Shown: one piece after another, positions 5,920 to 10,002 of the stretch
Layout: each line of letters begins with the position of its first letter
Position numbering within the stretch: position 1 is the stretch's first letter
From: a virus
Strand: one strand, 5' to 3'
Length of the DNA stretch: 21,034 nucleotides
Virus record (IMG/VR): IMGVR_UViG_3300020183_002779
Coordinates: 1 to 21,034 of that record
The notes under the pieces: generated by a model
What the model was told of the DNA's origin: nothing
The model's database searches: none
What the model saw: the letters and a program-made list of their open reading frames with translations, nothing else
Made by a program: the position numbers and the translations under genes

Positions 5920-5991
5920 ATGTCAAATTTGCAACAAATCGTAACGGACTTGACAAAGCCTGTTTTGTCATATATAATGATTGTTCAGTGA
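5920..5991 (+). CDS. Putative 23-aa leader ORF
   Basis: This is a short frame (MSNLQQIVTDLTKPVLSYIM plus three residues) with a good GGAG at 5910-5913, 6 nt before the ATG. It starts with MSNLQ, similar to MSNIQ at the start of the downstream CobT-like gene, and ends 16 nt before that gene. The second promoter lies completely inside it. It may be a leader peptide, a remnant of a duplicated gene start, or an accident. I cannot show that it is translated. Confidence 0.35.
   Translation: MSNLQQIVTDLTKPVLSYIMIVQ
5950..5978 (+). promoter_or_regulatory. Consensus promoter P2 of the CobT-like gene
   Basis: TTGACA (5950-5955), 17 bp, TATAAT (5973-5978): identical to the sigma70 consensus in both boxes and in spacing. 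A 7-bp inverted repeat (TGACAAA 5951-5957 / TTTGTCA 5964-5970) overlaps the -35 box and the spacer and could be an operator. The expected start near 5985 leaves a leader of only about 23 nt. Confidence 0.88.
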
Positions 5992-8294: not shown

Positions 8295-8328
8295 ATACCG
8301 CTGCTTGACAAAGTGGCGGTATTCTTTT
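8295..8328 (+). terminator. Intrinsic terminator merged with the next promoter
   Basis: The arms 8295-8306 and 8311-8322 form a 12-bp stem (two adjacent G-U pairs) with loop GACA, followed by TCTTTT. It begins 4 nt after the CobT-like stop. The loop and upper stem contain the -35 box of the next promoter. Confidence 0.72.
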
Positions 8329-8333
8329 ATAAT
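8305..8333 (+). promoter_or_regulatory. Consensus promoter of the CobS-like gene
   Basis: TTGACA (8305-8310), a 17-bp spacer and TATAAT (8328-8333) match the sigma70 consensus exactly. The spacer is the 3' arm of the preceding terminator plus its U tract. Transcription should begin near 8340, so the CobS-like gene must start downstream, which fixes its ATG at 8364. Confidence 0.9.
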
Positions 8334-9574: not shown

Positions 9575-9606
9575 AAAGAGAGTGTTGACACACTCTCTTT
9601 TTTTTT
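9575..9606 (+). terminator. Intrinsic terminator after the CobS-like gene, with the next -35 box in its loop
   Basis: A perfect 10-bp stem (9575-9584 with 9591-9600) encloses a six-base loop that is exactly TTGACA. The 3' arm and following bases give an unbroken run of T (9598-9606). This is the strongest terminator in the window. Confidence 0.92.
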
Positions 9607-9620
9607 ATATAATGTCAACA
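9583..9620. repeat. 8-bp inverted repeat flanking the core promoter of the HTH gene
   Basis: TGTTGACA (9583-9590) and TGTCAACA (9613-9620) are exact reverse complements. They cover the -35 box and the expected start-site region. This is a reasonable operator for a dimeric regulator, possibly the HTH protein encoded next, but that is inference. Confidence 0.45.
9585..9613 (+). promoter_or_regulatory. Consensus promoter of the HTH gene
   Basis: TTGACA (9585-9590), 17 bp, TATAAT (9608-9613). The -35 box is the loop of the terminator and the spacer is its 3' arm plus the U tract. Expected start at about 9619-9621, just before the pseudoknot. Confidence 0.92.
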
Positions 9621-9621
9621 T

Positions 9622-9663
9622 GTAGAGAAAAGTCGCCTCTACTTAATATTTTTCAGAGCGACT
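9622..9663 (+). promoter_or_regulatory. Candidate H-type pseudoknot in the 5' leader of the HTH gene
   Basis: Stem 1 pairs GTAGAG (9622-9627) with CTCTAC (9637-9642). Stem 2 pairs AGTCGC (9631-9636), which lies in the loop of stem 1, with GCGACT (9658-9663). Both are perfect 6-bp stems. Loop 1 is 3 nt, there is no base between the stems, and loop 3 is 15 nt and A/U-rich. This is classic coaxial H-type geometry. It sits at the very 5' end of the predicted mRNA, 8 nt before the GGAG ribosome-binding site (9672-9675). Confidence 0.6.
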
Positions 9664-9683
9664 ATTTTTATGGAGTAAATTGA

Positions 9684-9947
9684 ATGTCCGCTAAAGATAA
9701 AATTCTTAAATACCTTTCTAAAGAGGGTCCTTATAACACTTTGACCGTTGCACAGGCTCAGTCACGTTTTCGTATCAGCAACGTTGGTGCTCGTATTGAA
9801 GAACTTCGTGCGGAAGGTCATTGTATCTACACCAACAAGAAAACTCTTGACAACGGTAAAACAATTACCTTCTACCGTCTTGGCAAACCGACTAGAGAAA
9901 TGGTTGGTTTGGCACATGCGGTTCTTGGCGCTCAAGCTTTTGCCTAA
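9684..9947 (+). CDS. Small winged helix-turn-helix protein (HTH_39-like)
   Basis: This 87-aa basic protein resembles the phage helix-turn-helix families typified by HTH_39: KDKILKYLSKEGPYNTLTVAQAQSRF, then RISNVGARIEELRAEGHCI as recognition helix and start of a beta wing, then a hairpin with NGKTITFYRLG. It probably binds DNA as a small regulator. It has its own consensus promoter, an inverted repeat over that promoter, a leader pseudoknot and its own terminator, so it is an independently controlled single-gene unit, which is unusual among the coupled genes around it. Autoregulation is plausible but inferred. Its tail (GLAHAVLGAQAFA) is hydrophobic and helical. Confidence 0.8.
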   Translation: MSAKDKILKYLSKEGPYNTLTVAQAQSRFRISNVGARIEELRAEGHCIYTNKKTLDNGKTITFYRLGKPTREMVGLAHAVLGAQAFA

Positions 9948-9965
9948 AAAAAACTAAAGAATTGA

Positions 9966-10002
9966 GTGAGGGCACATATATACTATGTGTTCTCACTTTT
10001 TT
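9966..10002 (+). terminator. Intrinsic terminator after the HTH gene
   Basis: A 13-bp stem (9966-9978 with 9984-9996, two G-U pairs) with loop TATAC is followed by six T (9997-10002). Confidence 0.9.

What the first reader, a model, noticed from the sequence alone, without database searches (positions are those of the whole stretch)
9622..9663. H-type pseudoknot at the 5' end of the HTH-gene mRNA
Two perfect 6-bp stems interlock: GTAGAG/CTCTAC and AGTCGC/GCGACT. The 5' arm of the second lies in the loop of the first, there are zero bases between stems, loop 1 is 3 nt and loop 3 is 15 nt. The structure begins about 2 nt after the predicted transcription start and ends 8 nt before the Shine-Dalgarno. 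T4 gene 32 uses a leader pseudoknot for translational autoregulation, and small preQ1-type riboswitches also use this fold. This sequence matches neither that I can recognise, so it may be a new cis-regulatory RNA for a small DNA-binding protein.
Basis: partly seen in the sequence, partly recalled or inferred. Interest (0 to 1): 0.66.

Follow-up and report, generated by a model that had tools for sequence, protein, structure and literature searches.

The report
Phage mRNA 5'-end pseudoknot (HTH gene)
A small knotted RNA fold at the very start of one phage gene's messenger RNA is real: many distantly related, uncultured T4-like phages keep it by matching mutations in both arms. It occurs only in front of that gene, so it probably controls how much of a small winged-helix (nucleic-acid-binding type) protein the phage makes.

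Summary
The H-type pseudoknot at 9622-9663 is present exactly as described, and it is real. Leaders of homologous HTH_39 winged-helix genes in uncultured T4-like phages give 74 distinct versions. They differ in sequence and in loop length but keep both stems. In an alignment fitted only to stem 1, stem 2 pairs in 99.5% of cells. In one fitted only to stem 2, stem 1 pairs in 93.3%. Two-sided changes far exceed shuffles, and sliding the partner by one to three bases destroys the pairing. The fold starts about +1 to +3 from a conserved strong sigma-70 promoter and usually ends 7-11 nt before the Shine-Dalgarno. It precedes a gene usually followed by its own terminator. Covariance models found one confident copy in each of 16 of 20 phage records. 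Thirty-eight of 38 matches to three further patterns precede this gene. Rfam 15 has no match. The loops are not conserved, which argues against a metabolite aptamer. A sister lineage has a simple hairpin at +1 instead, so a 5'-end mRNA-stability role is the main rival. Best explanation: a cis-acting leader element, most likely an autogenous translational operator (as in T4 gene 32, or Aca2). The structure is close to certain; the mechanism is inferred, about 50%.

The parts
9575..9600 (+). Intrinsic terminator hairpin of the upstream AAA-ATPase (cobS-like) gene; its loop holds the -35 of the HTH promoter
   Evidence: 11 pairs, T-run; same arrangement in close relatives
9585..9613 (+). Sigma-70-type promoter, TTGACA-17-TATAAT (12 of 12)
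   Evidence: a promoter-like site is found in 66 of 74 distinct homologous leaders, with 7-9 nt between the -10 and stem 1 in most
9620..9620 (+). Predicted transcription start (about 7 nt after the -10)
   Evidence: inference from the promoter geometry; not measured
9622..9627 (+). Stem 1, 5' arm GTAGAG
9628..9630 (+). Loop 1 (AAA), crosses stem 2
   Evidence: length 1-4, mode 3, in 74 distinct homologs
9631..9636 (+). Stem 2, 5' arm AGTCGC
9637..9642 (+). Stem 1, 3' arm CTCTAC
9643..9657 (+). Loop 3 (15 nt, U-rich), crosses stem 1; not conserved in sequence, length 7-17
9658..9663 (+). Stem 2, 3' arm GCGACT
9672..9675 (+). Shine-Dalgarno GGAG, 8 nt after the pseudoknot
   Evidence: spacing 5-14 nt, mostly 7-11, in 74 homologs
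9684..9947 (+). 87-aa winged helix-turn-helix protein, Pfam PF14090 HTH_39, phrog_4973
   Evidence: AlphaFold model mean pLDDT 83.7
9964..9998 (+). Intrinsic terminator after the HTH gene, making a transcript of about 380 nt
   Evidence: a similar terminator in 59 of 69 homologous loci examined

Best explanation
The feature is a cis-acting H-type RNA pseudoknot at the extreme 5' end of a short, probably monocistronic mRNA for a small winged-helix (HTH_39) protein of T4-like phages. Shown by comparison: both stems are under selection as RNA; the element sits next to the promoter start site and just upstream of the Shine-Dalgarno; one copy was found per phage record; it is tied to this gene only. 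Inferred: it is an autogenous operator. The encoded protein would bind the folded leader, recognising helix features (the fairly conserved GAG/CTC part of stem 1 and the YCNC/GNGR part of stem 2) rather than loop bases. The bound complex, whose edge lies about 20 nt upstream of the AUG (the edge of the 30S footprint), would block ribosome loading and so hold the protein at a set level. Unbound, the compact fold would leave the ribosome-binding site free and shield the 5' end.
For: Covariation: 10 of 12 pairs change on both sides; 96.3% of cells paired against 81.2 +/- 1.2 in shuffles, and 35-46% when partners are slid. Stem 2 pairs in 99.5% of cells in an alignment fitted to stem 1, stem 1 in 93.3% in one fitted to stem 2. 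The 21 distinct stem-2 arm pairs all match their own partner but only 101 of 420 swapped pairs do. Loop 3 varies from 7 to 17 nt and stem 1 from 5 to 13 bp, as an RNA fold allows and a DNA operator does not. Covariance models over 20 long phage records: one confident hit in each of 16, none elsewhere. Position-independent patterns: 38 of 38 hits in three patterns precede this gene (37 flagged automatically, the 38th is the L063 contig); in a fourth all well-formed hits do. Synteny cobS-PK-HTH-clamp persists at 45-68% clamp identity. Pseudoknot end to Shine-Dalgarno mostly 7-11 nt. Precedents: T4/RB69 gp32 operator (PMC535899); the HTH protein Aca2, which binds DNA and RNA (Birkholz 2024, as cited in PMC12017499).
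Against: No binding or expression data exist. The sister clade of the same protein lacks the pseudoknot and has only a short hairpin at +1, so the protein does not need this RNA everywhere, and a generic 5'-end role could explain both. The winged-helix fold is usually DNA-binding. The [AVT]FA tail that marks nearly all pseudoknot-lineage proteins is one event on the tree, so it is not independent evidence of RNA contact. The Shine-Dalgarno is not covered by the pseudoknot itself.
Confidence: 0.5

Rival explanations
1. 5'-end stabiliser or expression element: the pseudoknot tucks the mRNA 5' end into a stem so that 5'-dependent decay is slowed, and keeps the ribosome-binding site free, giving high constant expression of a small protein from a strong promoter. 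No ligand and no feedback.
For: Stem 1 starts at about +1 to +3 in most leaders. The sister lineage has a plain hairpin starting 5-7 nt after the -10 in front of the same gene, so a folded 5' end is kept even where the pseudoknot is absent. Strong promoter and short transcript.
Against: A hairpin would do for this role. Keeping a second interlocked stem, and the GAG/CTC and YCNC bases, over such divergence suggests specific recognition. The other two perfect promoters in the window show no comparable leader structure.
Confidence: 0.28
2. Ligand- or host-factor-sensing riboswitch (preQ1-like in architecture), where the pseudoknot folds on binding a small molecule or host protein and changes translation of the HTH gene.
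For: Compact H-type fold 8 nt upstream of the Shine-Dalgarno; one gene controlled.
Against: Loop nucleotides, which build the pocket of known pseudoknot aptamers, are not conserved in sequence or length. No Rfam riboswitch is among matches even at E up to 5. The gene has no metabolic link, and no other gene carries the element.
Confidence: 0.08
3. RNA that acts on RNA polymerase at the transcript 5' end (put-like antiterminator), allowing read-through of the terminator after the HTH gene into the glycosyltransferase-clamp region.
For: Position at the very 5' end and a terminator directly after the gene in 59 of 69 loci examined; replication genes follow.
Against: Spacing to the Shine-Dalgarno is kept, which this model does not need. 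The hairpin lineage has the same downstream order without the pseudoknot. No direct evidence.
Confidence: 0.05
4. DNA-level operator: the stem-1 inverted repeat is a binding site for the winged-helix protein just downstream of its promoter, and the pseudoknot is a by-product.
For: A winged-helix protein is encoded immediately downstream; inverted repeats beside promoters are typical operators.
Against: A second, interlocked inverted repeat co-varies too. Arm spacing (loop 3, 7-17 nt) and stem length (5-13 bp) vary freely and G-U pairs occur, as expected of RNA, not of a DNA site with fixed helical phase. No second copy of the repeat in the window.
Confidence: 0.04
5. Chance: stems that arose by accident in an AT-rich leader.
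For: Other equally stable pseudoknots can be drawn elsewhere in the window.
Against: All covariation results.
Confidence: 0.01

Closest known systems
Bacteriophage T4 / RB69 gene 32 translational operator (gp32 autoregulation)
   Same: T4-like phage; 5' leader pseudoknot upstream of the Shine-Dalgarno of a nucleic-acid-binding protein gene; single gene controlled in cis (PMC535899).
   Different: Gene 32 encodes a single-strand-binding protein, not a winged helix. Its operator has a second, unstructured component of more than 40 nt with UUAAA repeats between pseudoknot and start (PMC535899). Here only about 8 nt separate pseudoknot and Shine-Dalgarno, and the pseudoknot is at the transcript 5' end.
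Aca2 leader-RNA control (anti-CRISPR operon regulator, Birkholz et al. Nature 2024)
   Same: Small phage HTH protein with leader RNA structure in front of its own gene's mRNA; Aca2 binds both DNA and RNA (cited in PMC12017499; that it blocks translation via leader stem-loops is from my own knowledge, the paper is not held).
   Different: The window protein is a Pfam HTH_39 winged helix with no detected sequence similarity to any solved Aca2. No anti-CRISPR gene is involved; binding is not shown here.
preQ1 riboswitches (classes I-III)
   Same: Small H-type pseudoknot near the ribosome-binding site.
   Different: No Rfam match; six-pair Watson-Crick stem 2 and unconserved loops; no queuosine gene.
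5'-terminal stem-loops that protect mRNAs from 5'-dependent decay
   Same: Structure starts at about +1; the sister lineage shows exactly such a hairpin.
   Different: Two interlocked covarying stems with conserved pairs.

Membership tests
H-type RNA pseudoknot (fold class) | Two interlocked helices, 5' arm of the second in the loop of the first | tested here: met
   sequence; covariation in both stems
Any family in Rfam release 15 | Covariance-model score at or above the curated gathering score | tested here: not met
   no match in the window or in 12 divergent loci; nothing credible at E up to 5
T4 gene 32 translational operator | Leader of an SSB (gp32) gene | tested here: not met
   the gene downstream is HTH_39 / phrog_4973
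T4 gene 32 translational operator | Unstructured UUAAA-repeat stretch of more than 40 nt 3' of the pseudoknot | tested here: not met
   only 20 nt separate the pseudoknot from the AUG
T4 gene 32 translational operator | Encoded protein binds its leader and represses its own translation | not testable with these tools
   needs binding and reporter assays
preQ1 riboswitch | Match to the preQ1 covariance models | tested here: not met
Aca2-type RNA/DNA-binding HTH regulators | Aca2-like HTH protein | tested here: inconclusive
   Pfam HTH_39 above the gathering score; a profile search of solved structures lists no Aca2; fold searches list generic winged helices
Aca2-type RNA/DNA-binding HTH regulators | Protein binds leader RNA structure and blocks translation | not testable with these tools
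   no binding data
HTH_39 (PF14090) winged helix proteins | Pfam match above gathering score | tested here: met
   30.5 bits against a cut-off of 21.3, E 3.2e-07

The most novel reading that the evidence does not exclude
A winged-helix protein family (HTH_39) of uncultured T4-like phages recognises a pseudoknot at the 5' end of its own mRNA and represses its own translation. This would be a further HTH-fold protein acting as an RNA-binding autoregulator beside Aca2, with a leader RNA family not in Rfam 15, conserved down to about 50% protein identity.
Probability: 0.45. Interest if true: 0.72.

Novelty: new member of a known kind. Interest (0 to 1): 0.6.

Why it matters
It gives a comparatively proven RNA structure, absent from Rfam 15, for a widespread group of uncultured T4-like phages, attached to one small regulator-like gene beside the phage replication genes. 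If the protein is its ligand, winged-helix proteins would join the HTH proteins shown to control mRNAs through leader RNA, which is directly testable with one protein and one 45-nt RNA. If it is a 5'-end protector, the natural switch between pseudoknot and hairpin lineages in front of the same gene is a clean comparison of what a pseudoknot adds.

Tried and rejected
Single-sequence statistics alone: rejected as proof, because a crude scan of the window finds other pseudoknots of equal score, and the nested-only fold energy of the leader is unremarkable (z -1.06). A loose DNA pattern (GTCGCCTCT...GCGAC) gave mostly chance hits in GC-rich contigs; a pattern that includes stem 1 fixed this. Cultured phages with HTH_39 homologs show no such pseudoknot in their leaders, as read by eye in DLP6, Itty13, BcepMigl, ICBM1/2, SIO1, pCB2047-C, Pmp11, RHEph21, ctQRb9 and HTVC008M. 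Relatives in GTDB genomes: none by peptide patterns; no exact match to one close pattern. An HTH profile too diverse for the genome scan failed. A hairpin that would sequester the Shine-Dalgarno (TTTTTATGGA with TCCGCTAAAGAT) and a nested alternative in loop 3 (TCT 9638-9640 with AGA 9655-9657) were seen in the window fold, but read as window-specific: relatives mostly have TCT for TCC after the ATG, and GT at the end of loop 3. They were not counted as parts. Aca2's paper is not held. Note on bias: leaders found with the GAGA...GCGAC pattern are fixed at those bases, so base-conservation claims rest on the 23 homology-found types only.

Full report
WHAT IS THERE. The window is part of a T4-like phage (DNA polymerase about 52% identical to cyanophages; sliding clamp; clamp loader). 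They lie between a 12-of-12 sigma-70 promoter (9585-9613) and the Shine-Dalgarno of an 87-aa winged-helix protein gene at 9684-9947 (Pfam HTH_39, phrog_4973). A strong terminator follows at 9964-9998, so the unit reads promoter, pseudoknot, Shine-Dalgarno, gene, terminator in about 380 nt.

IS IT MORE THAN CHANCE. In shuffles of the 65-nt leader, 0 of 2000 contain so stable an H-type pseudoknot, but the whole 21-kb window contains others of similar score, so the single sequence is not proof. The proof is comparative. Searching IMG/VR with the protein alone, and so blind to the leader, returned 80 loci plus a profile-based set. Their leaders and those found by pattern contain 74 distinct pseudoknots. 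Stem 1 appears as GTAGAG/CTCTAC, GCAGAG/CTCTGC, ACAGAG/CTCTGT, ATTTGAGAG/CTCTCAAAT, TTTTGAGG/CCTCAAAA, ATTTGAGC/GCTCAAAT, TCTGAGA/TCTCAGA and a 13-bp form in L296. Stem 2 appears as AGTCGC/GCGACT, GAATCGC/GCGATTC, GGTCTC/GAGACC, GAGCCGC/GCGGCTT, AAGCCACT/AGTGGCTT, AACCAC/GTGGTT, GAATTGC/GCAATTC, GTGTCGC/GCGACAC and GAGATAT/ATATCTC.

STATISTICS. On a 29-sequence alignment, 96.3% of cells are standard pairs against 81.2 +/- 1.2 in shuffles. Ten of 12 pairs change on both sides, and sliding the partner by 1-3 columns drops pairing to 35-46%. To avoid circularity I built one covariance model from stem 1 only and one from stem 2 only, aligned 38 and 41 matches to them, and counted the other stem: stem 2 is 99.5% paired on the stem-1 alignment and stem 1 is 93.3% paired on the stem-2 alignment. 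All 21 distinct stem-2 arm pairs match their own partner, against 101 of 420 swapped combinations. Caveats: these counts are by sequence, not by independent event; most of the 29-41 sequences were chosen for carrying the pseudoknot; and the pattern-found ones are fixed at the pattern's bases. The homology-found set alone shows the same two-sided changes.

GEOMETRY AND LINKAGE. Loop 1 is 1-4 nt (mode 3), loop 2 is 0-1, loop 3 is 7-17, stem 1 is 5-13 bp and stem 2 is 5-8 bp. The pseudoknot ends 5-14 nt before the Shine-Dalgarno, mostly 7-11. A promoter is recognisable in 66 of 74 leaders with the -10 mostly 7-9 nt before stem 1, placing stem 1 at about +1 to +3, and a terminator follows the gene in 59 of 69. 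Scanning 20 phage records (up to 177 kb) with both models gave one confident hit in each of 16 records, and nothing better than E about 0.07 elsewhere. For records I checked, the coordinates correspond to the HTH leader loci. Three further patterns hit 38 places, all in front of this gene (one, L437, is the L063 contig missed by the automatic flag). Synteny cobS, pseudoknot, HTH, glycosyltransferase-like, clamp is kept at 45-68% clamp identity.

RNA, NOT DNA. Variable spacing, variable stem length, interlocking repeats and G-U pairs argue for selection on RNA. The unpaired loops are poorly conserved, which argues against a small-molecule pocket. The better conserved bases lie in the stems (GAG/CTC; YCNC), which suits recognition of a helix by a protein or strict stability needs.

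SISTER LINEAGE. Twenty-two homologous leaders lack the pseudoknot. They form one clade of the protein tree, show no detectable cobS upstream, and in most of them a 4-7 bp hairpin (for example CTTGC-GCAAG, CTTGT-ACAAG, TACTCG-CGAGTA) begins 5-7 nt after the -10. A folded 5' end is therefore kept, and the pseudoknot is lineage-specific. This is the best support for the stability rival.

MECHANISM. Linkage to a single nucleic-acid-binding protein gene, one copy per record, closeness to the Shine-Dalgarno (edge at -21 from the AUG) and the gp32 and Aca2 precedents make autogenous translational control the most likely role, at about 50%. Steps shown: structure, selection on both stems, position, exclusive linkage. 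Steps inferred: transcription start, protein binding, block of ribosome loading. The protein model is a confident winged helix (mean pLDDT 83.7) resembling many DNA-binding and some other nucleic-acid-binding winged helices. Such middling matches do not tell DNA from RNA binding.

KNOWN OR NOT. No Rfam 15 family matches, and nine literature searches found no description of this element (subscription journals mostly not held). It works like, but fails membership tests for, the T4 gene 32 operator, and it fails the preQ1 riboswitch test. I therefore file it as a new member of a known kind: a phage leader pseudoknot controlling a nucleic-acid-binding protein gene.

Noticed in passing
9575-9613 and 8295-8333: Terminator and promoter overlap: the -35 TTGACA lies in the loop of the upstream intrinsic terminator and its U-run forms part of the promoter spacer. 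Close relatives keep this with altered but still paired stems (for example L016 GGGTGTG-TTGACA-CACACCC).
   Followed up: partly
9964-9998 and downstream of the HTH gene in about 59 homologous loci: The terminator after the HTH gene has an unusually long, AU-rich, similar apex (CATATATA...ATGTG) across very divergent phages; it may be more than a terminator.
   Followed up: partly
L068, L075, L369-L403 leaders: Sister lineage of the same gene carries a short hairpin at about +1 in place of the pseudoknot.
   Followed up: partly
C-terminus of the HTH protein, window 9936-9944: All but one of the pseudoknot-lineage proteins end in [AVT]FA (the exception, L387, ends VFT); none of the hairpin-lineage ones do. 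This is one event on the tree; it could be a degron or a contact site.
   Followed up: partly
L083 (Pelagibacter phage HTVC008M) 2430-3195: In this cultured relative a ribosomal protein S21 gene, preceded by what looks like a tRNA-like sequence, sits between cobS and the HTH gene, and there is no pseudoknot.
   Followed up: no
L057, about 45 nt upstream of the HTH gene: One close relative has lost the -10 and the whole pseudoknot in a single deletion just after TTGACAC; it could be a real loss or an assembly error.
   Followed up: no
5950-5978, 8305-8333, 9585-9613: Three perfect 12-of-12 sigma-70 promoters, in front of the peptidase-like, AAA-ATPase and HTH genes in turn; only the last has a strongly folded leader.
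   Followed up: no
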